Shown: positions 7,741-36,722 of the stretch, piece after piece
Layout: each line of letters starts with the position of its first letter
Position numbering within the stretch: the stretch's first letter is position 1
Origin: an uncultured Caulobacterales bacterium
GTDB lineage: Bacteria; Pseudomonadota; Alphaproteobacteria; Caulobacterales; Maricaulaceae
NCBI GenBank assembly: GCA_938009235.1
Contig: CALLIK010000003.1
Location: 1-64,000, forward strand
Direction of reading: 5' to 3'
DNA: 64,000 nt
Translations under genes and position numbers: made by a program
Notes under the pieces: generated by a model
The model's database searches: none
Seen by the model: only the letters and a program-made list of their open reading frames with translations
Told to the model about the DNA's origin: nothing

Positions 7741-10700
7741 ATGTTTTTCCAAAGTAAGATATTATATATAAACCGCCTCGCTGGTGTTGCCTTACTCTCA
7801 CTCACTAGTCTTTTTATGGCTCAACACGCCTCAGCTCAAACAGTTGTTTACCAAGATGACTTTGAAGGGGCTGTTTCGGGATGGTCATCTAACGTTACAG
7901 AAAACGCACCACTTCTTGGCACTAATATGCTTGGCCGATTTGGCGGCTCGACGGCAGAAACCTCAAGAACATTTACTGTGCCAGTGGGCACAACGGCGCT
8001 AGATATCGAATTTGACTTATTACGGTTCGACAGTTGGGACTTTTACAACGCTGCGAACCAAGATGGTTTTGCCGTCCTGATTGATGGTAATACAATATTT
8101 TCTACCACGGCCAGTTTTGGCACGGTTCCTCGACTAGATTTTTCTGTCGGTCAGGGACCAAGGTCAGGGGCATCTGGGAATGTGGATTGGGCGCATGTGC
8201 GCTTAAACCCGACTGACGCTCAAGTGAGTGCAGGCAATCAGGAACAAGAACTTGGGTTCACCACGGGTCAGTATTGGTATGACCAAGTTCACAGGTTTAC
8301 AATCAATGTAAACAATCCCGGTACAACGGTTGATTTAACATTACGCTTCGATACCGATCAAACCATCAACGACGAGTCCGCGGGTTTTGATAACTTTCTA
8401 GTCACGGCTATTACGCCAACTTCGCCGACAGATGCCGACTTGGTAACAGTTAAATCGTTAGCTTCCGCGTCGGCAACGCCAAGTGAAGGCGATATAGTTG
8501 CCTTTGATATTGAAGTCAGTAATAACGGTGGCGCGGAGGCGACGGGTGTTAGCCTAACAGATTTAATTCCTGCGGGCCTTACAGCGACAGGTGCAAACGG
8601 CACGGTCAATGCTGGTTCTTATGATGCGAGCACAGGTCTTTGGACTTTGGGCACACTTGCAAATGGTGCATCCGCGACGCTGACGATTGAAGGCACGGTC
8701 GATGCGGGGCAGGTCGGCAATACACTTACAAATACATTGGCTGCTCCTGCATCAGGCGATCAACCCGACCCAAGTACCGTGGGAGATGACCTGACTGAGA
8801 GTGTAACGATTGTGGACTCTAGTTCTGGCGGTGGCGGCGGCTTCTGTCCTGTTGGGGCAACAACTATGCCCGGAACGTATCATGTCGTGTCAGCCACAGG
8901 CGGGAATAGTCCAAATAATACTGTTGGTACGCCGGCTGCCGAAGGGTCAACACAAACGAATGGCGCTGTGCTTTGGAGCGGCAATATGGACATGGACCTC
9001 ACTGGAGACGCGGATATTCTAGTCCCTGAGGGCGAAGTTCTTGAAGTCGTTTTGTCCTCACATTGGGGAACGCAAGCTCGTGCAGAAGTTCTCATGTCTG
9101 CGGATGGCACGAATTACACGAGTCTCGGCACGGCGGGTAATGGCGGTTCTGTTTACGGCGCGTGGCAAAGTAACATTTTAAGATATGACGATTTCGCTGT
9201 GCCTCCAGGCGGCGCGCGCTATTTGCGTTTGTCTCACCAGAGTTCGGGCGTGCGCGCTGACGGTGTTCTTTATGGGACGCAGTGCCTACTGAGTGCGCAG
9301 ACGGATGTCGATCTCGTGACGGTTAAAAACCTGAGCTCTGCGAGCGCAACGCCAAATGTAGGTGATACGGTCACATTTGAAATTGAAGTTAGTAATAACG
9401 GTGTGGGTGAGGCAACTGGCGTTAGCTTAACAGATTTAATTCCTGCGGGCCTCACAGCGACAGGTGCAAACGGCACGGTCAGTTCTGGCTCCTATGATGC
9501 GGGTACAGGGCTTTGGACTTTAGGCACGCTTGCAGACGGTGCGTCAGCGACCCTAAGGATTGAAGGTACGGTTGATGCAGGGCAGGGCGGGAATACAATT
9601 ACAAACACATTGGCGTCCGCCGCGTTGGGCGATCAAACTGATTCCACGACGGATGGAGATGACCTGATTGAGACTGTCACTGTGACGATACCGGCGACAC
9701 CTGTTGTCGAAGCGGTAGATAATGACTTTACAACGACGGCAATTACACCTGGCTTTGGCGGCGTTACCGCGTCCATTTTCGATAATGATACGCTGAACGA
9801 CGCAACTTTTACGCCTACGGATGTTACAGTCACGGTTATCGATGATGGGAGCTTATTTGGAGCAGTTATTAATGCTGATGGAACGATTGATATTCCAGCA
9901 ACAATAGCCCCTGGCATTTATGAACTGGTCTATGAAATTTGCGATGTAAATGATTCCAGCAATTGTGACATTGCGATTGCGACAATTGCGATTCAAAGCG
10001 TTGTTGCTAATGCTCATATTAACCCAAGTGTTTGCGGTGCCTTTTTATCGCAAAGCTGGATTGTCCATGGGAAGTTGAACCTTCATGACTCAGAGGTCCA
10101 AATTGGATCGGGAGACTTTGCGACAGACCCCTATCTTTATTTACCTATTGAACGCGATGCTGAAGGGCGAATTCTAACTTACTTTGGTTCAAATGACGGG
10201 ACTGATTCTGGAACAGTATTGACGCCCGCACTTGCAGAAGTGTCGACGTCGCAAAATACTGCAGCAGACCATGAATCGGATTTTCAAGTCATTGTTTACA
10301 GACTCGAAGGAGCACCTGGTACAACCTTGACCGCAAATTTTAATAGTCGCGCTGAACAAGATTATACGGGATATTGGATTGAGGACACGGCTGGTAATGT
10401 TATCAGTGCCTCTGATTTTCAGTTTACGACAGGCACCTCTGGTATTGGCGGCGTGGGCGAAGAACTTCCATTGAGCTTCACCGCGCCTGCAGATGGAATT
10501 GCCTATCTTCACGTCGCGATTTTTGACCCTAGCGCGTTTTTCGGAAAGCCAGTTATTGACAATTACGAATGTCCTGCACCTTCACTCTCTATGACTAAAG
10601 TGGCGGATAACCCAGGCCCACATAAGGCTGGCGATGTTGTAACCTATACTTACACGGTTACGAATGACGGCAATCAAATTATTGAAAATGTCGCGATCAC

Positions 10701-10887
10701 CGATACGCATAATGGCTCTGATCCTGCACCGATACCAGGGAATGAAACGCTCCTAACGGACGCTGCGCCAATAGGCGACTCGACAGATGCTGGACCTAAT
10801 AATTCATGGGATGTTTTAGCCCCAGGTGATGCGATCGTCTTTACGGGAACATATACGGTGACGGCAGAAGACGTCGATACTTTGTAA
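7741..10887 (+). CDS. Secreted surface protein with DUF11 repeats, apparently truncated at the C-terminus
   Basis: 1048 residues. The signal peptide ends around QHASAQ. It is followed by a lectin/jelly-roll-like region (VVYQDDFEGAVSGWSS...), a first DUF11 repeat (about 230-360), a Cys-containing sandwich domain (about 365-515), a second DUF11 repeat (about 520-640), Ig-like and other modules, and the beginning of a third DUF11-type repeat (MTKVADNPGPHKAGDVVTYT). The two complete DUF11 repeats are close copies (VSLTDLIPAGLTATGANGTV in both). The frame stops at TAATAA inside the last domain (VFTGTYTVTAEDVDTL), with no anchor or sorting domain. RBS GAGG precedes the ATG. An adhesin or surface-layer role is inference only. 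Confidence 0.8.
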   Translation: MFFQSKILYINRLAGVALLSLTSLFMAQHASAQTVVYQDDFEGAVSGWSSNVTENAPLLGTNMLGRFGGSTAETSRTFTVPVGTTALDIEFDLLRFDSWDFYNAANQDGFAVLIDGNTIFSTTASFGTVPRLDFSVGQGPRSGASGNVDWAHVRLNPTDAQVSAGNQEQELGFTTGQYWYDQVHRFTINVNNPGTTVDLTLRFDTDQTINDESAGFDNFLVTAITPTSPTDADLVTVKSLASASATPSEGDIVAFDIEVSNNGGAEATGVSLTDLIPAGLTATGANGTVNAGSYDASTGLWTLGTLANGASATLTIEGTVDAGQVGNTLTNTLAAPASGDQPDPSTVGDDLTESVTIVDSSSGGGGGFCPVGATTMPGTYHVVSATGGNSPNNTVGTPAAEGSTQTNGAVLWSGNMDMDLTGDADILVPEGEVLEVVLSSHWGTQARAEVLMSADGTNYTSLGTAGNGGSVYGAWQSNILRYDDFAVPPGGARYLRLSHQSSGVRADGVLYGTQCLLSAQTDVDLVTVKNLSSASATPNVGDTVTFEIEVSNNGVGEATGVSLTDLIPAGLTATGANGTVSSGSYDAGTGLWTLGTLADGASATLRIEGTVDAGQGGNTITNTLASAALGDQTDSTTDGDDLIETVTVTIPATPVVEAVDNDFTTTAITPGFGGVTASIFDNDTLNDATFTPTDVTVTVIDDGSLFGAVINADGTIDIPATIAPGIYELVYEICDVNDSSNCDIAIATIAIQSVVANAHINPSVCGAFLSQSWIVHGKLNLHDSEVQIGSGDFATDPYLYLPIERDAEGRILTYFGSNDGTDSGTVLTPALAEVSTSQNTAADHESDFQVIVYRLEGAPGTTLTANFNSRAEQDYTGYWIEDTAGNVISASDFQFTTGTSGIGGVGEELPLSFTAPADGIAYLHVAIFDPSAFFGKPVIDNYECPAPSLSMTKVADNPGPHKAGDVVTYTYTVTNDGNQIIENVAITDTHNGSDPAPIPGNETLLTDAAPIGDSTDAGPNNSWDVLAPGDAIVFTGTYTVTAEDVDTL

Positions 10888-10999
10888 TAAAGAACCATAA
10901 TTTCCAATAGTTGCTACTAAGTTGATGGTTGGTTTTCGGATTTAAAACTGCTGCTGATTGCCTATTGGTGCCAACCACCCCTCAAATAAATATCTCGCC

Positions 11000-12871
11000 T
11001 TACCCGCGTTTTTCTTTTGCGATATAATTATCTATGACGCGTTCTAGGACTGTCATGGGGACGCTGCCGCCCAATACCAATGCGTCATTGAAACGGCGGA
11101 AGTCGAAGGCTTCGCCCAGTTCTGTTTTGGCTTTGGTCCGCAAGCGGTTGATGGCGGAGTGTCCGACTTTATAGCCGAGGGCTTGACCCGGCCATGCGCA
11201 ATAGCGGTCAATTTCGCCGCGCACTTCTTCGGGGTTTGATCCATTATTGACGACGAACCATTGGTTCGCTTCCTCGCGGGTCCAACGCTTCGCATGAAGG
11301 CCCGTATCGACCACGAGGCGGCACGCGCGGAAGGCGAGGGATTGTAGATAGCCCAATCGCCCAACGGGGAAGTCTTTATACACGCCCAGCTCATCCGCGA
11401 TCTGTTGCGCATATAAGGCCCACCCTTCGGAATAGGCATTAAACGCGAGCAGGGACCGCGTGAGCGATTGTTTAAACGCATATTCGCCCTGCCACACATG
11501 ACCCGGAATGGCTTCGTGATACGTCAGGTCTGCAAGGTTGAATTTGTTGTGCAAATCGGTGGAGCGAAGGTTGATCCAAAAATGCCCCGGTTGCGTGCCG
11601 TCAATTGACCCTGCGCCGCCATAGGCACCGGGGGCGCCCGCTTCGACTTCGGGGGCGATGCGTTCGACTTTGAGGAAGCCCGGAACTTGCGTTTCAAAGG
11701 CTTGCGGCATCAGCGCGCGAATCTCTGCGACGGCGGTTTCAATAAAGTCCATAATTTCGGCGCGGCCCGGATCACCCGCTTTGAAGTGATAGCGTTTGTC
11801 TGCCCCAAGCGCCGTCATGCGGTCGCCCACAGAGCCTTTGGTGTAGCCGATAGATTGCAAGATTGGCTCCATTTGAGACTGCAGGTTTGCGAGTTCATCG
11901 AGGCCCATTTGGTGGACCTCTTCGGCGCTCATCGTCGTTGTCGTGCCTGCGCGGAGTGTCCAGTCGTAATAGGCGTCGCCATTGGGTTTGGCCCAGACAC
12001 CTGCGTCGGATGTGGCTTTCGGCGCGAGGGCTTCGAGCGCTTCGATCTGGCGGTTCAGGGCGGGGATGACGGTTTGCGTGGCGATGGAGACTGCGGCGTC
12101 GTCATATGAGCCGAGGTCTTTGGCGCGGCCCGTTAGGGATGTCACAAGGCCCCATTGTGCGGGGTCGCGGTCACGTGCGCCGCGAAGTTGCCCAAGGGTT
12201 TTGTCCATCAGGAAGTCTGGCAGGATGATGCCTTTTGCACCGTCAGCTTTGATGCGTTCTGACTCGCCATCAAGCTGCGCGGCATAGGCGGACATGCGCG
12301 AGAGATAAGCGTCTGCATCGTCAGGGGTAGCAATCGCGTGCGAGGCATCGAGGAAGCTTGGAATTTCAACAAATGCGCCTGTGTTCTGCGCGACGGCATA
12401 GGGGCTGTTTCGATAGGACCAATTGTAATTCAACAAGGCCGTATCGCCGAAGCCAAAGTCAAACCCTTCTGCGGCGCGTTCAAAGACAGAAGACACGACA
12501 TCCATATCCAAGGCGACGTCAGCCGATAGCTTATCCGTGTCAGTTTTTTTCATCTCTGCCAACAGTGCGTGAACCTCTTTCGCGATCTTGTCTTGCCCTG
12601 CAGCCGAACGGTCCGTGAGCTGTGATTTCAACGCGGCATAGTCACCCGTATCGACACCCACGCTAGAGGCGGTTTCAGGATAGGCCCGCAGCATGAGGTC
12701 TTTGGCTGTGTCGAGAAGGTTGAATGCACCCGCATCTGGCGCTGATCGTGTTGCCTCTTCGCTCGTGGCCTTTAAGTCGGAGGCGCTTTCCGCGCACCCC
12801 GCTCCAATCAATCCAGTCGTCGCCGCAGCTGCAGCGGAGGTTTGCAAGAGTGTACGACGGGAAAATTTCAT
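11000..12871 (-). CDS. DUF885-family Tat-exported lipoprotein, probable metallopeptidase
   Basis: About 623 residues. MKFSRRTLLQTSAAAAATTGLIGAGCAES has a twin-arginine motif (SRRTLL) and a lipobox-like cysteine, so it should be folded before export and lipid-anchored. TYHEAIPGHVWQGEYA near residue 450 contains the HEAxPGH metal-site motif characteristic of DUF885 proteins, which resemble zinc carboxypeptidases. Substrate is unknown. I chose the ATG at 12871 because TTGAGG sits 8 bp upstream. No operon partner: the next gene on this strand, the uridine kinase, starts far upstream and ends 80 bp away. Confidence 0.85.
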   Translation of the reverse strand: MKFSRRTLLQTSAAAAATTGLIGAGCAESASDLKATSEEATRSAPDAGAFNLLDTAKDLMLRAYPETASSVGVDTGDYAALKSQLTDRSAAGQDKIAKEVHALLAEMKKTDTDKLSADVALDMDVVSSVFERAAEGFDFGFGDTALLNYNWSYRNSPYAVAQNTGAFVEIPSFLDASHAIATPDDADAYLSRMSAYAAQLDGESERIKADGAKGIILPDFLMDKTLGQLRGARDRDPAQWGLVTSLTGRAKDLGSYDDAAVSIATQTVIPALNRQIEALEALAPKATSDAGVWAKPNGDAYYDWTLRAGTTTTMSAEEVHQMGLDELANLQSQMEPILQSIGYTKGSVGDRMTALGADKRYHFKAGDPGRAEIMDFIETAVAEIRALMPQAFETQVPGFLKVERIAPEVEAGAPGAYGGAGSIDGTQPGHFWINLRSTDLHNKFNLADLTYHEAIPGHVWQGEYAFKQSLTRSLLAFNAYSEGWALYAQQIADELGVYKDFPVGRLGYLQSLAFRACRLVVDTGLHAKRWTREEANQWFVVNNGSNPEEVRGEIDRYCAWPGQALGYKVGHSAINRLRTKAKTELGEAFDFRRFNDALVLGGSVPMTVLERVIDNYIAKEKRG

Positions 12872-28582: not shown

Positions 28583-29152
28583 GGGTGGCGGTTAGCAAAG
28601 CTAACGAGGTTGTGGAACCTAAATGCCCAGATTGTTTTGTGGCTTGATTGTTTTGTGGCCTGATAGTTTTGTGGCCTGATAGTTTTGTGGAGTGAGGTTG
28701 GGTGGTAAGGTTTGGTTAACCATAAAACCAAAAATGAACTCGTTTTAGGTTCTCTTTTAGGTTGTATTCATGTTGCTATCTTATCTTAAAACCTAAGCGC
28801 TGCCGTGCTGAACGTCGAACGTGGGAGTAGAGTGTTCAGTCGGCAGCGCACAGTTTTCTCTGCACGCTTCTCCTAATGACTTTCAGGTGATGTCTTTGAG
28901 TCAAAGTTGTCTGCATTTGAATAAACTCAATTGCTCGCATGGTGACAACAACACAATTAAAATACACAATATGTGAAATTATTATGTTTTTTATATCAAT
29001 AAAATCTCTGAACCCTTATGCATTGCGGTGATATATGCGTTCATAGGTTGTAAATCATGCATAGGGCTAAGTATTTGAATGAATGAAGATGACTTGGATA
29101 AAAGGACGGGGTTAACTCTCAAAATATCTAGGCAGTCAGGTTTGAGGTTGGA
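28583..29152. other. 570-bp gene-poor AT-rich interval
   Basis: No credible gene. It holds a four-copy 16-bp tandem repeat (28632-28695), repeated TTTTAGGTT/AAAACCTAA words around 28720-28795, and a TGTGAAAT half-site near 28973 that recurs at 29509. Base composition is visibly AT-richer than the flanking housekeeping DNA. A 53-codon plus-strand frame at its right edge runs antisense into the XRE gene and is not convincing. Confidence 0.6.
28632..28695. repeat. Tandem repeat, four 16-bp units
   Basis: Four consecutive units at 28632, 28648, 28664 and 28680. The consensus is TWGTTTTGTGGCCTGA; the first carries GGCTTGA and the last GGAGTGA. It starts about 50 bp upstream of the NUDIX start on the far side of its promoter region. 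Confidence 0.9.
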
Positions 29153-29440
29153 TTATGTCGCTTTATTGACTGAGGGACTAGATGCAACGGCACTTGCCAT
29201 ACTTGCTGGCAACGCACTAACCTTGCCGTCATATAAGTAATCTAGCGAAATACCGTATATTCTAAGAAGTTTTATAGCGTAATCGACTGGAAAACGCCTG
29301 TGCCCAGACACCCAATTGCCTACACGGCTATTGGAGACCGACAGAATTTTGGCAAGATCATTATTGGATAATTCCAATATGTCACGAACAATGATTAATC
29401 GTTCACCGATTTCTTTGTGTGGATATTTACTTAGCTCCAT
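29153..29440 (-). CDS. XRE/Cro-CI-type HTH regulator
   Basis: 95 residues. A helix-turn-helix (LELSNNDLAKILSVSNSRVGNWVSGHRRFPVDYAIKLLRIYGI) occupies most of the protein, followed by a short Ala/Ser-rich tail. There is no sensor domain. The ATG directly follows a TGCGA-ATTG-TCGCA palindrome (29442-29455) that leaves no room for a normal ribosome site, so the message may be leaderless and the site an autoregulatory operator. It lies in AT-rich DNA just left of the tRNA-Ser island but outside the island's direct repeat; it may be a relic of another element. Confidence 0.75.
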   Translation of the reverse strand: MELSKYPHKEIGERLIIVRDILELSNNDLAKILSVSNSRVGNWVSGHRRFPVDYAIKLLRIYGISLDYLYDGKVSALPASMASAVASSPSVNKAT

Positions 29441-29441
29441 G

Positions 29442-29455
29442 TGCGAATTGTCGCA
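29442..29455. promoter_or_regulatory. Candidate operator at the XRE start
   Basis: TGCGAATTGTCGCA: perfect 5-bp arms around 4 bp, two bases upstream of the XRE start codon. Confidence 0.4.
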
Positions 29456-29500
29456 TCAATAAGTTAAATAACCAAGTTCTAATATCTCTATTGAAATGGC

Positions 29501-29528
29501 TCACATATTGTGAAATTACTATTTCACA
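29501..29528. promoter_or_regulatory. Overlapping inverted repeats
   Basis: TCACA-TAT-TGTGA overlaps a second, perfect inverted repeat TGTGAAAT-TACT-ATTTCACA (29509-29528). Stacked palindromes sharing TGTGA look like binding sites for a dimeric regulator. They lie about 60 bp upstream of the XRE gene, on the far side from its coding region. Confidence 0.4.
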
Positions 29529-29666
29529 GCTTTGAATTGAGTCGATGCCCTAGGAAGCTATGTCCTCAGGTAGTCGAGTGTTTGAAGTCAATTCGACTTA
29601 AAGCCGCGAGGTTTGCAGGTCCTCCTCCCCCTAGGGCGCTATATGTCGCCCAAACCGAGACTGTGT

Positions 29667-29906
29667 ATGACTTACCAAGTGCAAACCTTAGCGATAAAAA
29701 GCCAAAACGAAATTGACGCAATGTCAGTCGTCTATTCAGTCGTCGAGGCGACTGATGTTGATCAACTTGCCGCCCGACTTGAGAGGGGCTTCGAGGATAT
29801 ATTTGAACTTTATGATGCGGACATCAAATTATGCAAATACGAGATTGCTGCCTTAAATAACCTACACAATGCGTTGCAGTTATTGGCGTTTAAACAATCA
29901 GCTTGA
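29667..29906 (+). CDS. Small hypothetical protein
   Basis: 79 residues from ATG 29667, or 61 from ATG 29721. Not recognised. The C-terminal part (VDQLAARLERGFEDIFELYDADIKLCKYEIAALNNLHNAL) reads as two amphipathic helices, plausible for a real small protein. There is no good ribosome site before either start, hence low confidence. It lies between the XRE gene and the left end of the island. Confidence 0.35.
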   Translation: MTYQVQTLAIKSQNEIDAMSVVYSVVEATDVDQLAARLERGFEDIFELYDADIKLCKYEIAALNNLHNALQLLAFKQSA

Positions 29907-30007
29907 ACCCTGAACGTATACCCCGTGACTAAGGCGAATAAGAAATAATAATTCACGCCCAAGACGTGGGCTTAAGAGCCCTACGCAGACATTAATTGCA
30001 CTGTACT

Positions 30008-30023
30008 GCTGGAGGTGGGGATG
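30008..30023. repeat. Left attachment site (attL), 16-bp repeat
   Basis: GCTGGAGGTGGGGATG, identical to 36630-36645 at the 3' end of tRNA-Ser. The bases on both sides differ, so the core is exactly 16 bp. Confidence 0.85.
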
Positions 30024-30142: not shown

Positions 30143-30160
30143 ATGTGGGTTGAAATGTGG
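30143..30160. repeat. 18-bp direct repeat, candidate integrase arm site (left)
   Basis: ATGTGGGTTGAAATGTGG, identical to 36555-36572. Each copy contains two ATGTGG words 11 bp apart. Adjacent to the integrase start. Confidence 0.65.
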
Positions 30161-30177: not shown

Positions 30178-31359
30178 ATGGGGAAAGCAAAAGGCAAGCA
30201 TGTTGAAAAGGCCTTAACAACGCTCAAAATCAACAAATTGAGTGTAGAAGGCAGGTATCCTGATGGGAATGGTCTGTATCTCGTTGTGTCATCATCTGGT
30301 TCTAAGCGATGGATCCTACGAATAATGGTGGATGGAAAGCGAAAAGACATCGGACTCGGCGGATGGAGAGATGTGACCCTAGCGATGGCTAGGGATGAAA
30401 CTCAGAAAATGAGACGGCAAGTGCGTGATGGTCTTGATCCAGTTATCGAAAGAAGAAAGTCCAAGAAAAAGGTTGTGACGTTTGATGAGTGTATGCGGGC
30501 TGTTCATGCTGCCAATGTACCAACATGGTCTCCCAAATATGCTATGCAATGGCTCAATATTGTCTCCAAACATGCCTCCCCAAAGCTGGGTTCGAGGTCA
30601 ATGGAGGGTATCACATCGGCAGATATAGTGGCTGTCTTGAGTCCGATCTGGGTTGAAAAGGCCGAAACTGCCCGACGCGTAAAACAGCGGTTAAGTGTTA
30701 TTTTTGATTGGGCGCGTGTTAACTTAGACGAATACGATAATGCCAATCCCGTGGCTGGCGTAAAGCAGGGCTTGCCAAAAGTAACTTACGAAGTGACTCA
30801 CTTCAGGTCGATGGATTATCAGGCAATTCCTGAATTCCTGACTATCTTAAAGGCTTCATCACAATCCATAAATGTGAAGCTGGCTTTAGAGTTTACGATC
30901 TTAACCGCTGCAAGATCAGGTGAGGTGAGGGGCGCGAAATGGTCGGAAATTGATCTTGAAAATGCGCTTTGGACCCGCCCAAAAGAAAGGATGAAAAATA
31001 AGAAAGAACATAAAGTGCCATTGACAGAACGATGCCTTGAGATTTTGCAAGAGATTAAACCTATATCGGGTAAGTCTGAATTGGTTTTCCCGAGTTCAAT
31101 TAATTGGACAAAACAGATGTCAGACATGACTCTTACCAAAGCTTTGAGGCGTTTAGGGCACTCATGCACGATTCATGGTTTTAGGTCATCATTTCGTAAT
31201 TGGACCGCCGAGCAGACCTCTTACCCTAGAGATGTATGTGAAATGGCGCTGGCGCATTCGTTGAAAGACAAAGTCGAGGCGGCTTACAAACGAACAGATT
31301 TGTTGGAAAAAAGGCGGTTGTTGATGAATGATTGGGCGGGTTATCTTATTGAAAAATAA
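30178..31359 (+). CDS. int: Tyrosine-type site-specific integrase (P4 family)
   Basis: 393 residues from ATG 30178; GTG 30157 would add seven. The N-terminal DUF4102 arm-binding domain (KLSVEGRYPDGNGLYLVVSSSGSKRWILR... DIGLGGWRDVTLAMARDE) is followed by a SAM-like core-binding domain. The catalytic domain has TAARSGEVRGAKWSEID (Arg I), HGFRSSFRNWTAEQ (HxxR), MALAHSLKDKVEAAYKRTD (second His and the nucleophilic Tyr). It is complete and should recombine the 16-bp att core at tRNA-Ser. It sits immediately inside attL, pointing into the island. Confidence 0.95.
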   Translation: MGKAKGKHVEKALTTLKINKLSVEGRYPDGNGLYLVVSSSGSKRWILRIMVDGKRKDIGLGGWRDVTLAMARDETQKMRRQVRDGLDPVIERRKSKKKVVTFDECMRAVHAANVPTWSPKYAMQWLNIVSKHASPKLGSRSMEGITSADIVAVLSPIWVEKAETARRVKQRLSVIFDWARVNLDEYDNANPVAGVKQGLPKVTYEVTHFRSMDYQAIPEFLTILKASSQSINVKLALEFTILTAARSGEVRGAKWSEIDLENALWTRPKERMKNKKEHKVPLTERCLEILQEIKPISGKSELVFPSSINWTKQMSDMTLTKALRRLGHSCTIHGFRSSFRNWTAEQTSYPRDVCEMALAHSLKDKVEAAYKRTDLLEKRRLLMNDWAGYLIEK

Positions 31360-31572: not shown

Positions 31573-31887
31573 ATGAAAACAAGTGAAAATACTCGCTTCA
31601 AGCGGGCTAGCGAAGCTTTGCCAAGAATTAAATATAAATTCAAAACAAAGTTAGATTTTAGTGCTCTAAATCTGTCGGCCAACGAGTCTCATGAATCAAT
31701 CGAAACACATAGGTTGATGCGAATTTGCGACATAGTTGGAGAGAATGGAATTCTCCCGATTAGCAAGAGCACCTTCTTTGCAAATGTGAAATTAGGCATC
31801 TATCCTAAAGGCACTAAAATATCACGTAGATGCACGGCTTGGCGTGAGGCTGATATTTTACGCATCGCCAAGCGTGGCTTCCAATAA
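31573..31887 (+). CDS. AlpA-like HTH regulator/excisionase
   Basis: 104 residues. The C-terminal half (ICDIVGENGILPISKSTFFANVKLGIYPKGTKISRRCTAWREADILRIAK) follows the AlpA/MerR-like pattern, in which a helix-turn-helix is followed by a basic wing and a WRxxDI closing helix. In P4-type islands AlpA stimulates integrase expression or excision. The N-terminal 50 residues are basic and unrecognised. AAGGA lies about 12 bp before the chosen ATG; a longer upstream frame exists. Confidence 0.75.
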   Translation: MKTSENTRFKRASEALPRIKYKFKTKLDFSALNLSANESHESIETHRLMRICDIVGENGILPISKSTFFANVKLGIYPKGTKISRRCTAWREADILRIAKRGFQ

Positions 31888-31898
31888 TGGAGGTGAAC

Positions 31899-32180
31899 AT
31901 GAATGAGGCTCAACTTCTTTATCGAGTCACCAAGGTACTTCAACGCAATCATGTGAGGCCGCATTGCCTATTGCCTGATTATGAAATGCGGGCGCTGTTT
32001 TCAGTTCTGTATGATACTGCCCGCCATTGGAATGATGCTAATTTTTCGTTGATGAACTATTTAGATTTTCGAATTGAGCAGGCGCAAAGCCTCAATTTCG
32101 ATCGCTATGAAAAAGATGAGTTAATCGTGTTTTATAGGCAGCTAGGGATTGAAAGCCTTTATGGTGGCGACTTTGGCTAA
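31899..32180 (+). CDS. Small island protein of unknown function
   Basis: 93 residues with an excellent ribosome site (GGAGGTG, 5 bp before ATG), 11 bp after the alpA-like stop. The sequence is mixed helical, rich in aromatic and charged residues (CLLPDYEMRALFSVLYDTARHWNDANFSLMNYLDFRIEQ). No family is recognised. The 3' end overlaps the next gene by 20 bp, so the three genes alpA-unknown-HTH look like one transcript. Confidence 0.7.
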   Translation: MNEAQLLYRVTKVLQRNHVRPHCLLPDYEMRALFSVLYDTARHWNDANFSLMNYLDFRIEQAQSLNFDRYEKDELIVFYRQLGIESLYGGDFG

Positions 32181-32622
32181 AAATTACGATTCCAAAAATG
32201 GAAATAAGCCTGAGAGATTTATCATGCTTGAGCACTGGATTTTGAAGCGACCCGCATGGAAGTCTCTAACTCCACGTGAGGTCAGAGTTCTGTTGCTGCT
32301 CTTAGAGCGCCATAATGGCTCTAACAACGGCAGAATTGGTTTGTCTGTACGAGATGCTGCAAATTTGGGAAATATGGCTCAGGGGACGGCTAAGAAGGCA
32401 TTTGATGTATTGATAGCGAAGGGGTTCGTGAAGCGGCATCTGGTGGGCTCTTTCAATCAGAAGGTTAGACTTGCTAGCGAGTACGAGCTTACGCATTTGC
32501 GGTATGGCAATAAGCCTCCAACCAAAGAGTTTGTTTTTTGGAGGCCAGAAAAAACAGCGGTATCAAATGAGGTGCGTGTTGGTCTGAAATTAGGAGGTAT
32601 GTCCAATGAGGGCGTGATTTAG
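32161..32622 (+). CDS. Helix-turn-helix-like island protein
   Basis: 153 residues from ATG 32161; ATG 32224 (MLEHWILKRPAWKSL) is an alternative with a purine-rich GAGAGA upstream. The middle (SLTPREVRVLLLLLERHNGSNNGRIGLSVRDAANLGNMAQGTAKKAFDVLIAKGFVKRH) reads as a winged helix resembling the N-terminal domain of small replication or regulatory proteins on alphaproteobacterial islands. It could control the RT genes, 355 bp downstream. No catalytic motif seen. Confidence 0.65.
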   Translation: MVATLAKNYDSKNGNKPERFIMLEHWILKRPAWKSLTPREVRVLLLLLERHNGSNNGRIGLSVRDAANLGNMAQGTAKKAFDVLIAKGFVKRHLVGSFNQKVRLASEYELTHLRYGNKPPTKEFVFWRPEKTAVSNEVRVGLKLGGMSNEGVI

Positions 32623-32977: not shown

Positions 32978-34237
32978 ATGGCCTACGACCTAACTTTACA
33001 CAAGAAGAGTATTCAGCGGCATGCGCTTCGCCAGTTGGACTTTTTTCGTCATCCCCATTTAGCAAAAAAAATGGAAATGGAAAAACTTCTTACTGCCTGC
33101 GAAAACATTTCAGTCGATGGGTTTAAAAATCTTAAGTATTCTGACACGAAGTCTGGCGGTAAAAGCATCTACAAGATATCAAGCTTCGAACATGAGCTGG
33201 TGCTCAGACTCATATCAAGAAGCTTAGTAAGGCTGACGGGTTCAAAGCAAAACAACCGAAAAATAATCGTAAATCGCTTGAAGGTAATGCTCCAAGAAGG
33301 GGTGAGCTTCAAAGTATTTAAGTACGATATAAGTAGTTTTTACGAGAGCGTAAATGTCTCAGAACTTCTAACTGATTTGGGAAAAGATCGAGGGTTTTCA
33401 AATTCCCACTATACATTATTGGAGTCCTTTTTTGCGCAACTTGCGAGCCTCAATATCAATGGATTACCACGCGGAATGGCCATCAGTGCAGTAATGGCTG
33501 AATATGCGATGCGTAGGTTTGACGATAAAGCTTCTGAGAGAGAGACATTATTTTTCTATGAAAGATTTGTCGACGACATCATCGTTATCACCAACCCGAA
33601 AGAAATGAGTACGGATTTAGGAAAGCTGTTTCGTAACAACTTGCCATACGGTTTAAGCCTAAATACCAAAAAGACGAAGAAATATGAATTCGTAGAGAAG
33701 GCCCTTCCCGATAATATAGATGAAGAGATCCACAACGATTTTGATTTCCTCGGGTACAGCTTTACAGTCACGAAACGTCAAAATCGAAAAAAGAATCTTC
33801 CGACAGATAGGCGGGTAACAGTCGATATTTCAAAATCCAAAACTAAGAAGATAAAGACCAAATTAGTTAAGTCCTGTCTAGCGTATTGCGATGATGGCGA
33901 TTTCGACGCCTTCCATGACAGGGTGAAATTGCTTTCGGGAAACTACTCGATTTATGACCGTGGGAGAAGGGTCAACCGAAAGGCTGGCATATATTATAAC
34001 TACAGCTTGGTTGATGGTGCTAAATCAATTTCACTAAAAGAATTGGATTTATTCCTGAAAACCATGGTTTTGTCCAGTCAAGGTAAGGTTTTTTCGAGAC
34101 TAAACCCAAAGTTATCATCTGCTCAAAAGCGTCTCCTTCTCAAGCTGAGTTTCGTCGACGGATTTCAGAAGAAAATTTTTAACAACTTCCCAAGCAAAAG
34201 ACTTGTTACTTTGATGGAGTGTTGGAAATATGAGTAA
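32978..34237 (+). CDS. Reverse transcriptase, Drt3a-like (defence system DRT3)
   Basis: 419 residues. The RT palm is complete: motif A KYDISSFYESV with Asp117, motif B GLPRGMAISAVMAEYAMRRFD, catalytic FVDD at 197-200, and DFLGYSF after it. The N-terminal basic region and the C-terminal 130 residues contain no integrase, maturase or endonuclease domain, as in the unknown-group/Abi RTs. GAGGGG precedes the ATG at 32978. It overlaps the next RT gene by 8 bp, so the proteins are made together. Known DRT3 systems consist of exactly two neighbouring RTs (UG3 and UG8) plus an ncRNA. The assignment to Drt3a rests on that arrangement and on size rather than a database match. A retron is unlikely, because no msr/msd lies directly upstream. 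Confidence 0.75.
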   Translation: MAYDLTLHKKSIQRHALRQLDFFRHPHLAKKMEMEKLLTACENISVDGFKNLKYSDTKSGGKSIYKISSFEHELVLRLISRSLVRLTGSKQNNRKIIVNRLKVMLQEGVSFKVFKYDISSFYESVNVSELLTDLGKDRGFSNSHYTLLESFFAQLASLNINGLPRGMAISAVMAEYAMRRFDDKASERETLFFYERFVDDIIVITNPKEMSTDLGKLFRNNLPYGLSLNTKKTKKYEFVEKALPDNIDEEIHNDFDFLGYSFTVTKRQNRKKNLPTDRRVTVDISKSKTKKIKTKLVKSCLAYCDDGDFDAFHDRVKLLSGNYSIYDRGRRVNRKAGIYYNYSLVDGAKSISLKELDLFLKTMVLSSQGKVFSRLNPKLSSAQKRLLLKLSFVDGFQKKIFNNFPSKRLVTLMECWKYE

Positions 34238-36206
34238 ATTAAAATATTCTCGTGGAAATATCCATCATGCTGATTACTCCCGATGTCTAGTTACGGACAC
34301 GCTGCCAGGTGATGTTCCAATAATATTCTCTAATGATGGCTTTTATAAAAATCAGAAAAAGAGAGATTTGTTTAATGCTGACACCAAACAAATTCTTGAT
34401 CATATCCTTGACCCAGCAACCAAATCTTACGCGGTGCCGTATAGATATAGGATTACAAAAAATGAGATTTCGACAAGAAGATTAAGTCTTTTGCATCCGC
34501 GTTCTCAACTTGAGGCTTGCGACTTTTACGAAACTTACGAAGACATAATCTGCTATTACAACTCTAAGAGCAAATTCTCTATACGTGCTCCGCAAAAAGT
34601 AGGGTCTTCATTTTTTTACAAGTGCAGTTTAGGGGAGAAAAATAAATACAAAGGTGGATCAGTAGATACCTTAGATTTTGAGAAGAGAATTCGAAACCCT
34701 TCTTCATATTTTTCTTATAGTGGCGTTGATAGATTGTACAAATTTTTTGAGTCCCCCAAATATCTCAGGCTAGAAAAGAAATTCTCAAACATGTGGTTTG
34801 CGGATGTAAGCAAGTGTTTCGCAAGCATATATACTCATACGTTGCTTTGGGCCGTAAAAGATATGCCTCTGTCAAAAGAAAGCAATGGTTATAAGTCCTT
34901 TGGGGCTGACTTTGATAAACTGATGCAACGCCAAAATTACAATGAGACGAATGGGATATGTATTGGTCCTGAGTTAAGTAGGGTATTTGCAGAAACAATC
35001 TTCCAGAACATCGACCACAAAGTTTATTTGAAGGCAAAGGCAGAAGGCCTAAAATTCAAGGTCGATTTCGAGTGTTTTCGATATGTCGACGACATTATCA
35101 TTTTTTCTAATGATGAAATCGTTAGTTCTAAAATTTACTCTCTTTTTGAGGAGGTTATGGGGGAGTTTAATCTTCACCTGAATAGTTCAAAACTAGAAAA
35201 ATATGTTCGACCGTTTCAAACGAAGAAGTCTCATGTGATCCAAAAGTTAGGGTCAGCCCTATCAAAGTTGGAAGAAAGACTAACGGATCAGATCAAAACT
35301 GAAACAGATACGCTGGTGGTGCCTAGACAAATCTACCGTTCGAATGCGGTCAAAATGGATTTTATCAAAACTGTGAAGTCGATCTGCTATGACGCAGAAG
35401 TTGGCTATGAAATGGTTGCAAATTTTCTAATATCTTGTTTGTCAAATTTACTTGAACGGCTAATCGAAAGTTATGAAAAAGTACCAAATGAGAACTGTAG
35501 GCCTCCTGAATGGTACCTTACTTCTGTCAACTTACTGCTTGATTTGATTTTCTTCCTATACACGGTACAGCCGAGCGTGAATACCTCGCTTAAATTGTCA
35601 AGAGCAGTAGTTCTTTCAATCAAGTTTGTAAAAAAGATGGACCCTAAGCGTTTACCATTCCTTGCAGAACTATTGACAGGATGGACCCACGAACTTGTTA
35701 AGTCGTTTGAGACGAGTAATCCAAAACTTACTAGGTCAAAAATTCCGATAGAAATATTGAATGTACTTTTGGCAATATCTGAAGCCGATATCGTTGATAG
35801 CTTTAATGATGATTTTGTAGAAAAAATTATACTAAGGTCGAAAAAACCCGATTACTTTTCTATCGTTTGCTTTTTGTTTTTTGCAAAGACGAACGTGAAG
35901 TTCTCCAAACTTAGAAAGGATTTAGAGAGGCACTTGTTGGAACACTTTGAGAAAAACGCTGACGTGCTTAAATATGCCCGGGACGCACATATGTTCCTAG
36001 ATTTAGTTTCTTGCCCTTATATCGACATCAAAGTACGTGGAAAAATTGTTCTCCATACAAACAAAGCACTAAAGTTAAAAACGTTGTCACTGACAAAATG
36101 CAGGGCAATAGCGGCAGAGCTAGAACTCGAGTCATGGTTCACAAACTGGAAGGAAGTGGACCTTCTAAACATGATTAGGCGAAAGGAGTTGAGCGCGGTG
36201 TATTAG
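34230..36206 (+). CDS. Reverse transcriptase, Drt3b-like (defence system DRT3)
   Basis: 658 residues. An N-terminal domain of about 180 residues (RCLVTDTLPGDVPIIFSNDGFY near the start) leads into the RT palm: motif A WFADVSKCFASIY with Asp192, motif B NGICIGPELSRVFAETIF, catalytic YVDD at 285-288. A helical C-terminal region of about 320 residues has no recognised domain. This shape, with the long N- and C-terminal extensions, fits the larger partner of the DRT3 pair. As I recall, recent work reports that Drt3b makes the poly(AC) strand without a nucleic-acid template; the residues involved cannot be checked here. ATG overlaps the upstream stop (ATGAGTAA). Both RT active sites are intact, so a working system is plausible. 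Confidence 0.75.
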   Translation: MSKLKYSRGNIHHADYSRCLVTDTLPGDVPIIFSNDGFYKNQKKRDLFNADTKQILDHILDPATKSYAVPYRYRITKNEISTRRLSLLHPRSQLEACDFYETYEDIICYYNSKSKFSIRAPQKVGSSFFYKCSLGEKNKYKGGSVDTLDFEKRIRNPSSYFSYSGVDRLYKFFESPKYLRLEKKFSNMWFADVSKCFASIYTHTLLWAVKDMPLSKESNGYKSFGADFDKLMQRQNYNETNGICIGPELSRVFAETIFQNIDHKVYLKAKAEGLKFKVDFECFRYVDDIIIFSNDEIVSSKIYSLFEEVMGEFNLHLNSSKLEKYVRPFQTKKSHVIQKLGSALSKLEERLTDQIKTETDTLVVPRQIYRSNAVKMDFIKTVKSICYDAEVGYEMVANFLISCLSNLLERLIESYEKVPNENCRPPEWYLTSVNLLLDLIFFLYTVQPSVNTSLKLSRAVVLSIKFVKKMDPKRLPFLAELLTGWTHELVKSFETSNPKLTRSKIPIEILNVLLAISEADIVDSFNDDFVEKIILRSKKPDYFSIVCFLFFAKTNVKFSKLRKDLERHLLEHFEKNADVLKYARDAHMFLDLVSCPYIDIKVRGKIVLHTNKALKLKTLSLTKCRAIAAELELESWFTNWKEVDLLNMIRRKELSAVY

Positions 36207-36288
36207 TAAGGTACTAGACTTAGGGGATTGAAAGATACCGATATACAGATTGGCGTTGCTGTTTTTTAAAATGGTGACAATGAGCTGT

Positions 36289-36510
36289 TATACTGCAGTC
36301 CGAAATACTTGGGTGGTAATTTACCTGAGTCACTCTGATCGTAGAGCGGCGTGAGTCGTACACACATAATTCGTGAAGTCAGTCCCCACCTTCGCTATTT
36401 CCGTGAATGTCTGCCTTGTCACTGCTCAAGAGGGCACATTGTCAGTTTGAATGACATCTGCATGAATAAAACGGTATGTCAAAAAGGTATGTGCGCTGTA
36501 TATCCTTAAG
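36289..36510 (+). ncRNA. Candidate DRT3 non-coding RNA with ACACACA template
   Basis: The non-coding stretch between the second RT and the right att site. TATACT (36289-36294) is a good -10 box with a weak TTTAAA 18 bp upstream, placing a start near 36301. Downstream are short hairpins: CTCT-GATCGT-AGAG (around 36333-36346), a TGCTC-AAGA-GGGCA hairpin (around 36420-36435) enclosed by ATGTC...GACAT. ACACACA lies at 36360-36366 between the folded parts. My recollection is that the DRT3 ncRNA supplies an ACACAC template to Drt3a. The ends are not defined by the sequence; no U-run terminator is visible. Confidence 0.5.
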
Positions 36511-36554: not shown

Positions 36555-36572
36555 ATGTGGGTTGAAATGTGG
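36555..36572. repeat. 18-bp direct repeat, candidate integrase arm site (right)
   Basis: Identical to 30143-30160 and in the same orientation, about 60 bp inside the right att core. Confidence 0.65.
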
Positions 36573-36629: not shown

Positions 36630-36645
36630 GCTGGAGGTGGGGATG
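36630..36645. repeat. Right attachment site (attR) within tRNA-Ser
   Basis: Same 16 bases as 30008-30023. It covers the encoded CCA, discriminator and acceptor-stem 3' strand of the tRNA, so integration leaves a working tRNA. Confidence 0.85.
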
Positions 36646-36722
36646 GGATTCGAACCCACGTTAGGCTATAAACCTAAACACGCTTTCCAAGCGTGCGCCT
36701 TAAACCACTCGGCCACCCCACC
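36632..36722 (-). tRNA. tRNA-Ser (anticodon GGA)
   Basis: 91 nt including an encoded CCA (36632-36634). Acceptor stem GGTGGGG/CCCCACC, D-arm GCCGAGTGGTTTAAGGC, anticodon arm CACGC-TTGGAAA-GCGTG with GGA at 36686-36688, a long variable arm (class II, as expected for Ser), and T-arm GTGGG-TTCGAAT-CCCAT. It reads UCC and UCU codons. It serves as the integration target of the island to its left. Confidence 0.95.

What the first reader, a model, noticed from the sequence alone, without database searches (positions are those of the whole stretch)
32978..36206. Overlapping pair of reverse transcriptases: a DRT3-type anti-phage system
Two intact RT genes overlap by 8 bp, with different catalytic boxes (FVDD at 197-200, YVDD at 285-288) and no maturase, integrase or endonuclease domains. 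They sit alone as cargo in a small tRNA island. Established knowledge: defence system DRT3 consists of two adjacent RTs (UG3, UG8) plus an ncRNA; as I recall, recent work reports it makes alternating poly(GT)/(AC) DNA. Inference: this pair is Drt3a/Drt3b, possibly a divergent alphaproteobacterial branch.
Basis: partly seen in the sequence, partly recalled or inferred. Interest (0 to 1): 0.92.

Follow-up and report, generated by a model that had tools for sequence, protein, structure and literature searches.

The report
Alphaproteobacterial DRT3 anti-phage reverse transcriptase pair
A small mobile DNA island in an alphaproteobacterium carries a complete, distantly related copy of DRT3, a known bacterial anti-virus system in which two reverse transcriptases are thought to build repetitive GT/AC DNA, one copying a small RNA and one using its own protein as the guide.

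Summary
Observation confirmed. drt3a (32978-34237) and drt3b (34230-36206) are intact, overlap by 8 bp, and carry FVDD and YVDD boxes. Both pass the curated equivalog cut-offs for Drt3a and Drt3b. Both match the solved DRT3 complex 9z6y.

A candidate ncRNA template, which the finding did not mention, is also present: ACACACA at 36360-36366, 154 nt past the drt3b stop, directly after a hairpin. ACACAC lies downstream of drt3b in 96 of 102 DRT3 loci (window included) and upstream of drt3a in 3 of 86.

The residues reported to make Drt3b a protein template are kept: D28 (the natural Glu-to-Asp form, 18 of 96), R83, R251 and C-terminal Tyr658. The pair is a long branch in a supported alphaproteobacterial DRT3 clade. 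It rides a 6.6-kb tRNA-Ser integrative element; a same-genus genome carries a related element with other cargo at that tRNA.

So this is a new, divergent member of a known system; its mechanism is inferred by homology. One lead: published work names RecBCD as the brake on DRT3, but this genome has AddAB and no detectable RecC.

The parts
32978..34237 (+). drt3a (UG3 reverse transcriptase, 419 aa), FVDD at residues 197-200; predicted ncRNA-templated poly(TG) synthesis
   Evidence: NCBIfam Drt3a 360.6 bits, cut-off 200; PADLOC Drt3a 424 bits; PDB 9z6y_A E 1.7e-59
34230..36206 (+). drt3b (UG8 reverse transcriptase, 658 aa), YVDD at 285-288, gate residues D28/R83/R251, C-terminal Tyr658; predicted protein-primed, protein-templated poly(CA) synthesis
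   Evidence: NCBIfam Drt3b 620 bits, cut-off 350; PADLOC 670 bits; PDB 9z6y_H E 7.8e-117 and 26cz_A E 9.5e-76; residues
36223..36387 (+). predicted DRT3 ncRNA core, bounded by the putative closing stem GGGGATTGA (36223-36231) / TCAGTCCCC (36379-36387); true ends unknown
   Evidence: the family-like fold is -51.4 kcal/mol against an MFE of -53.9; the closing stem alone is not significant (115 of 300 shuffles as long)
36346..36359 (+). hairpin GCGGC-GTGA-GTCGT abutting the template, as in relatives
36360..36366 (+). template ACACACA
   Evidence: ACACAC downstream of drt3b in 96 of 102 loci, window included
30178..31359 (+). tyrosine integrase of the island, 393 aa from ATG (longest ORF from GTG 30157)
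   Evidence: Pfam Phage_integrase, Phage_int_M and Arm-DNA-bind_3 above cut-off
31573..31887 (+). AlpA-like excisionase/regulator (weak)
   Evidence: Pfam Phage_AlpA E 8e-4, 19.7 bits, just under the 21-bit cut-off
31887..32180 (+). 97-aa island gene, no family found; the same slot in the G439 island holds a 110-aa ORF (sequence relation not tested)
32161..32622 (+). winged-helix, replication-initiator/DnaD-like island gene (ATG 32161; searched from 32164)
   Evidence: PHROG 186 E 2.5e-6; DNA match to the G439 island L148
30008..30023 (+). left att repeat GCTGGAGGTGGGGATG
36630..36645 (+). right att repeat, overlapping the 3' end of tRNA-Ser(gga), which lies at 36632-36722 (-)
30143..30160 (+). 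18-bp exact repeat, left copy (possible integrase arm site, a guess); right copy at 36555-36572
36555..36572 (+). 18-bp exact repeat, right copy

Best explanation
This is a complete DRT3 anti-phage system, drt3a-drt3b-ncRNA, of an alphaproteobacterial branch, carried as cargo by a tRNA-Ser integrative element. By homology, Drt3a copies the ACACACA loop of the downstream RNA into poly(TG). Drt3b starts DNA on its own C-terminal Tyr658 and makes poly(CA) without a nucleic-acid template, with D28 selecting dA and R251 selecting dC. The two strands anneal to repeat double-stranded DNA. The host's end-processing nuclease, here AddAB in place of E. coli RecBCD, would keep it low; a phage that blocks that nuclease would let it build up and stop the cell. 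Shown here: genes, template motif, gate residues, clade, island, and AddAB without detectable RecC. Inferred: every biochemical and immune step.
For: Equivalog matches and PADLOC matches. Match to the solved complex. ACACAC downstream in 96 of 102 loci (window included) against 3 of 86 upstream. Over 96 Drt3b (window included) the E22/Glu26 position is E or D in 96, the R241/Arg253 position R in 96, and the priming Tyr present in 95, the exception (L044) ending at a frame break. Trees. Conserved 8-bp gene overlap. Att repeats, a same-genus site without the island, and a related island with other cargo. AddA and AddB present, RecC not found. Mechanism from PMC13174585.
Against: Nothing found contradicts membership. 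The ncRNA of this one locus is not significant by structure alone: closing stem 115 of 300 shuffles; 3 of the window's 20 ACACAC sites, this one included, have a 5-bp abutting hairpin; about 7% chance of ACACAC in 450 nt; and the unconstrained MFE pairs part of the template. A covariance model from six alphaproteobacterial relatives did not find it, though of 42 sources outside its training set it gave only one weak hit. D28 corresponds to E22D, which kept only partial synthesis in E. coli DRT3b. AddAB as the brake is an inference; RecB and RecD were not searched.
Confidence: 0.9

Rival explanations
1. A DRT3 locus whose chemistry has drifted: the Asp gate (D28) and long branch mean Drt3b makes a less strict product (C-rich or slower), so defence depends mainly on Drt3a.
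For: D28 in place of Glu; long end branches (0.93 and 1.19) and at most 40% identity in the trees; E22D keeps only partial synthesis.
Against: Asp occurs in 18 of 96 Drt3b (window included), needing at least 5 changes on the tree; all 18 keep the R251-equivalent and all 18 have ACACAC downstream.
Confidence: 0.12
2. A decaying passenger: coding frames intact, but no functional ncRNA or expression in this host.
For: The structure of the ncRNA is not significant at this single locus, though the 214-nt region folds somewhat better than shuffles (z -2.4); no close relative was found to measure selection.
Against: Both frames open over 1077 codons with the catalytic, gate and priming residues that were checked all kept; template at 154 nt with its hairpin, near the 117-229 nt first-hit range of its clade.
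Confidence: 0.06
3. Not a defence system but a group II intron or retron RT pair or other retroelement.
For: Drt3a gives a weak group II maturase match (59.5 bits against a cut-off of 300).
Against: No maturase or endonuclease domain found; DRT3 scores far above any other family; no Rfam family but the tRNA in 8 kb.
Confidence: 0.01

Closest known systems
EcoDRT3 of Wang et al. 2026 (PMC13174585; 26cz_A appears to be its Drt3b, judged from residue numbering only)
   Same: Two-gene operon plus downstream ncRNA with ACACAC; Drt3b contact residues R71, D182, F187, R241, YVDD and C-terminal Tyr kept
   Different: Gate Glu22 is Asp28 here; Drt3a box FVDD, where the paper's mutant name YVAA implies YVDD; genome has AddAB and no detectable RecC
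DRT3 complex 9z6y/9z6z (depositors' names Drt3a and Drt3b; I take it to be that of Deng et al. 2026, which was not read)
   Same: Near full-length matches of both proteins; Glu26/Arg253 as given in PMC13213688 align with D28/R251
   Different: Glu26 is Asp28 here; Drt3a box YVDD there, FVDD here
Acetobacter oryzoeni plasmid DRT3 (L002) and the Sphingomonas/Sphingobium loci L031-L033
   Same: Same clade, same 8-bp overlap, ACACAC 117-142 nt downstream
   Different: About 36-40% identical in Drt3b; Glu gate; different ncRNA hairpins

Membership tests
DRT3 (UG3+UG8) | Drt3a (UG3) protein | tested here: met
   NF041747 360.6 bits, cut-off 200; three PADLOC Drt3a models rank first; 9z6y_A
DRT3 (UG3+UG8) | Adjacent Drt3b (UG8) protein | tested here: met
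   NF041748 620 bits, cut-off 350; two PADLOC Drt3b models rank first; 9z6y_H, 26cz_A
DRT3 (UG3+UG8) | Both RT active-site boxes intact | tested here: met
   FVDD and YVDD; Drt3a box Asp-Asp in 88 of 88 Drt3a examined
DRT3 (UG3+UG8) | Downstream ncRNA with ACACAC template | tested here: met
   ACACACA at 36360-36366; family-wide 96 of 102, window included. Motif met; transcription not testable
DRT3 (UG3+UG8) | ncRNA secondary structure like that of relatives | tested here: inconclusive
   Family-like fold possible; not significant alone; window not among the 39 of 96 whose best fold meets the criterion; covariance model too narrow to judge
DRT3 (UG3+UG8) | Drt3b gate residues (E22/R241 of Wang; Glu26/Arg253 of Deng) | tested here: met
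   D28 (Asp form, 18 of 96) and R251 (96 of 96)
DRT3 (UG3+UG8) | C-terminal priming Tyr of Drt3b | tested here: met
   Tyr658, last residue; Tyr in 95 of 96
DRT3 (UG3+UG8) | Makes poly(TG) and poly(CA) DNA | not testable with these tools
   needs cDNA sequencing
DRT3 (UG3+UG8) | Protects against phage | not testable with these tools
   needs plaque assays
Group II intron maturase | Maturase/endonuclease domains, intron RNA | tested here: not met
   59.5 bits against a cut-off of 300; no such Pfam domain; no intron RNA in Rfam at E up to 1

The most novel reading that the evidence does not exclude
DRT3 is not tied to RecBCD. In Alphaproteobacteria the brake, and so the tripwire, is AddAB, and the alphaproteobacterial DRT3 clade would be set off by phage proteins that block AddAB. 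The published guard model would then be one case of a wider rule: DRT3 watches whichever end-resecting nuclease its host uses.
Probability: 0.45. Interest if true: 0.5.

Novelty: new member of a known kind. Interest (0 to 1): 0.36.

Why it matters
It adds a deeply branching, complete DRT3 from Alphaproteobacteria with the natural Asp form of the dA gate, useful for asking how strict protein templating is. It also points to hosts without RecBCD: of 18 alphaproteobacterial DRT3 hosts searched (17 with a DRT3 of this clade, 1 of another subfamily), 18 have AddA over the cut-off and none has a RecC match. That makes the RecBCD-guard model testable in a second setting.

Tried and rejected
ncRNA covariance model: MAFFT alignments of the divergent downstream regions did not keep the hairpins in register, and RNAalifold found no pairs in A4. 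A model from six well-aligned relatives found those six again and, of the other 42 sources, gave only one weak hit, in L064 (E 9.5). Its silence on the window therefore says nothing either way.

FVDD as a special trait: rejected, 27 of 88 Drt3a have it. A non-DRT3 retroelement: rejected. A viral relative found with the single protein: none; the four-sequence alignment found 12. Near full-length relatives in annotated phage records: none, 0 of 9 matches cover 80%. Promoter and terminator scan: no more than chance. Not run: structure prediction and fold search, because sequence already ties both proteins to a solved complex.

Full report
Observation. The two genes are as described: 32978-34237 and 34230-36206, 8 bp of overlap, both open, FVDD at 197-200 and YVDD at 285-288. 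Pfam shows only RVT_1 above cut-off in each.

Identity. NCBIfam's equivalog models name them Drt3a (360.6 bits, cut-off 200) and Drt3b (620.1 bits, cut-off 350). PADLOC ranks Drt3a and Drt3b models first by wide margins: 424 bits against 88 for the next family, and 670 against 131. Both match the solved complex 9z6y nearly end to end. The window's genome holds one Drt3b.

Relatives. One scan of genome contigs found 167 relatives and kept the best 80; viral contigs gave 12. I also fetched 4 of the 148 plasmid records found and 6 over-cut-off loci. With the window that makes 103 loci. They are not independent: several are near-copies (L003/L063, L009/L085, L074/L079, L115/L116).

ncRNA. Published DRT3 has its ncRNA downstream of drt3b with a conserved ACACAC template (PMC13174585; seen: abstract, Results parts 1-2 of 3 and section 9, Discussion, two methods sections, figure legends). 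A review, PMC13314766 (seen: abstract, part of section 4, one search for passages), says the same. In the window ACACACA lies at 36360-36366. Of 102 loci with at least 250 nt downstream (L078 dropped as cut off), 96 have ACACAC in the next 450 nt; in 400 nt upstream of drt3a, 3 of 86 do (window in both counts, without a hit upstream). The six misses are four loci whose drt3b frame is broken (L069, L117, L119, L120), so that the end used is not the true one, and two Orbaceae loci (L094, L099) with CACACAT. Hits in L076 (+367) and L091 (+267) are far out and may be chance.

In the window a 5-bp hairpin with a GTGA loop abuts the template (36346-36359). Four relatives picked by hand for the same 14-nt geometry (L057, L058, L070, L113) keep the stem pairing through changes on both sides. 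Over the family, a free template inside an outer stem with an abutting hairpin is met by 39 of 96 minimum-energy folds, against 5.2% of shuffles. The window is not among the 39: its unconstrained best fold pairs part of the template, and the family-like fold costs 2.5 kcal/mol more. The 214-nt region folds somewhat better than shuffles (z -2.4), but the closing stem alone is not significant (115 of 300 shuffles), and 3 of the 20 ACACAC sites in the 64-kb window, this one included, have a 5-bp abutting hairpin. The case for the ncRNA therefore rests on position, motif and family conservation, not on single-locus energetics.

Protein template. In PMC13174585, E22 and R241 of Drt3b select dA and dC, R71 helps, and Y666 primes. 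PMC13213688 (passages seen) gives Glu26 and Arg253 for the other structure. Both numberings map to D28 and R251 here (counted by hand from the alignments). Over 96 Drt3b, window included (7 of 103 dropped as broken, cut or partial: L048, L069, L078, L104, L117, L119, L120): position 28 is E in 78 and D in 18; R251 in 96; R83 in 95 (N in L004); D192 and F197 in 96; the primer Tyr in 95, the exception being L044, which ends at a frame break. The Asp form needs at least 5 changes on the tree. PMC13174585 reports that E22D keeps partial synthesis and occurs in a substantial fraction of homologs. So the window most likely makes strict poly(CA), perhaps more slowly. For Drt3a, 88 of 103 loci were examined; the rest had no, a broken or a short (under 350 aa) frame or belong to the dropped seven.

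Phylogeny. The window's Drt3b sits on a 0.93 branch inside a 23-row clade (98): 18 rows named Alphaproteobacteria plus 5 without a class label (window, plasmid L002, L009, a Gemmatimonadota and a Verrucomicrobia bin). Its place within that clade is open. Drt3a agrees (21 rows, 96). Trees are quick searches without bootstrap. None of the 17 other genomes of the genus has a Drt3b match (several are incomplete), and the only two other hits over the cut-off among 137 family genomes (L026, L027) fall in a distant DRT3 subfamily. That fits horizontal gain.

Island. The 3' end of tRNA-Ser(gga) (36632-36722) is repeated at 30008-30023. In same-genus genome G443 the left neighbour gene ends about 160 nt from the tRNA, so the whole insert is missing there; on the other side the right neighbour lies about 1.3 kb from the tRNA, against 0.26 kb in the window. 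In G439 the same tRNA carries an island with a related integrase, a related replication-initiator-like gene, its own 17-bp att pair, and different cargo. None of the four other island genes matches a phage structural family, so it looks satellite-like; that label is an inference.

Brake. PMC13174585 finds that a DRT3 plasmid cannot be propagated in cells lacking RecBCD parts and that lambda Gam triggers DRT3. The window's genome (94.8% complete) has AddA (1049 bits, cut-off 861) and AddB (739 bits, cut-off 487) side by side and no RecC match; a GreA/GreB-type protein is present too. RecB and RecD were not searched. I searched the genomes of 50 of the 80 genome-contig loci: of 18 alphaproteobacterial hosts (of 22 so titled), 18 have AddA over the cut-off and none has RecC; of the other 32, 19 have RecC over the cut-off, 2 more below it, and 11 have neither RecC nor an AddA over these cut-offs (other AddA models were not tried). 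This mirrors what these lineages are known to carry in general (recalled), so it does not show that AddAB guards DRT3; it makes RecBCD an unlikely brake there. No paper in the library holds both 'AddAB' and 'DRT3', and the main text of PMC13174585 holds no 'AddAB'.

What is recalled, not tested: Gao 2020 and Mestre 2022 as sources of the DRT3 and UG3/UG8 names, and Deng 2026 as the source of 9z6y; none was read.

Verdict. A real, complete and divergent DRT3. The mechanism is known from others' work; this is a new member of a known kind.

Noticed in passing
L009, L034, L037, L038, L041, L061, L067, L071, L085 (Drt3b): Nine of 96 Drt3b, all in the alphaproteobacterial-type clade, have YVDN in place of YVDD (at least 2 changes on the tree), so the second Asp of the box may be dispensable there.
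   Followed up: partly
L005-L008, L026-L027, L074, L079, L083-L084, L088, L093, L095, L097-L098, L100, L105, L107-L110: A second DRT3 subfamily (Drt3b tails like KELDAKQSQEVY) has ACACAC 39-76 nt after the drt3b stop, so its ncRNA may overlap the end of the gene.
   Followed up: no
L094, L099: Two Orbaceae DRT3 loci have no ACACAC in 450 nt; CACACAT is the nearest candidate template.
   Followed up: no
L111-L122: DRT3 genes occur in 12 IMG/VR viral contigs, so DRT3 may also travel in prophages or satellites.
   Followed up: no
28600-30007: About 1.4 kb between the conserved NUDIX-like gene and the left att repeat is also absent from the G443 site; it holds a 16-bp tandem repeat (28624-28687) and a phage-repressor-like HTH gene (29153-29440, minus). 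Possibly a remnant of an earlier insertion.
   Followed up: partly
L148:7381-11391: Related tRNA-Ser island in a same-genus genome with a 261-aa protein (10362-11147, minus) in the cargo slot that matches no PHROG or PADLOC family (Pfam not tried); its function is unknown.
   Followed up: no
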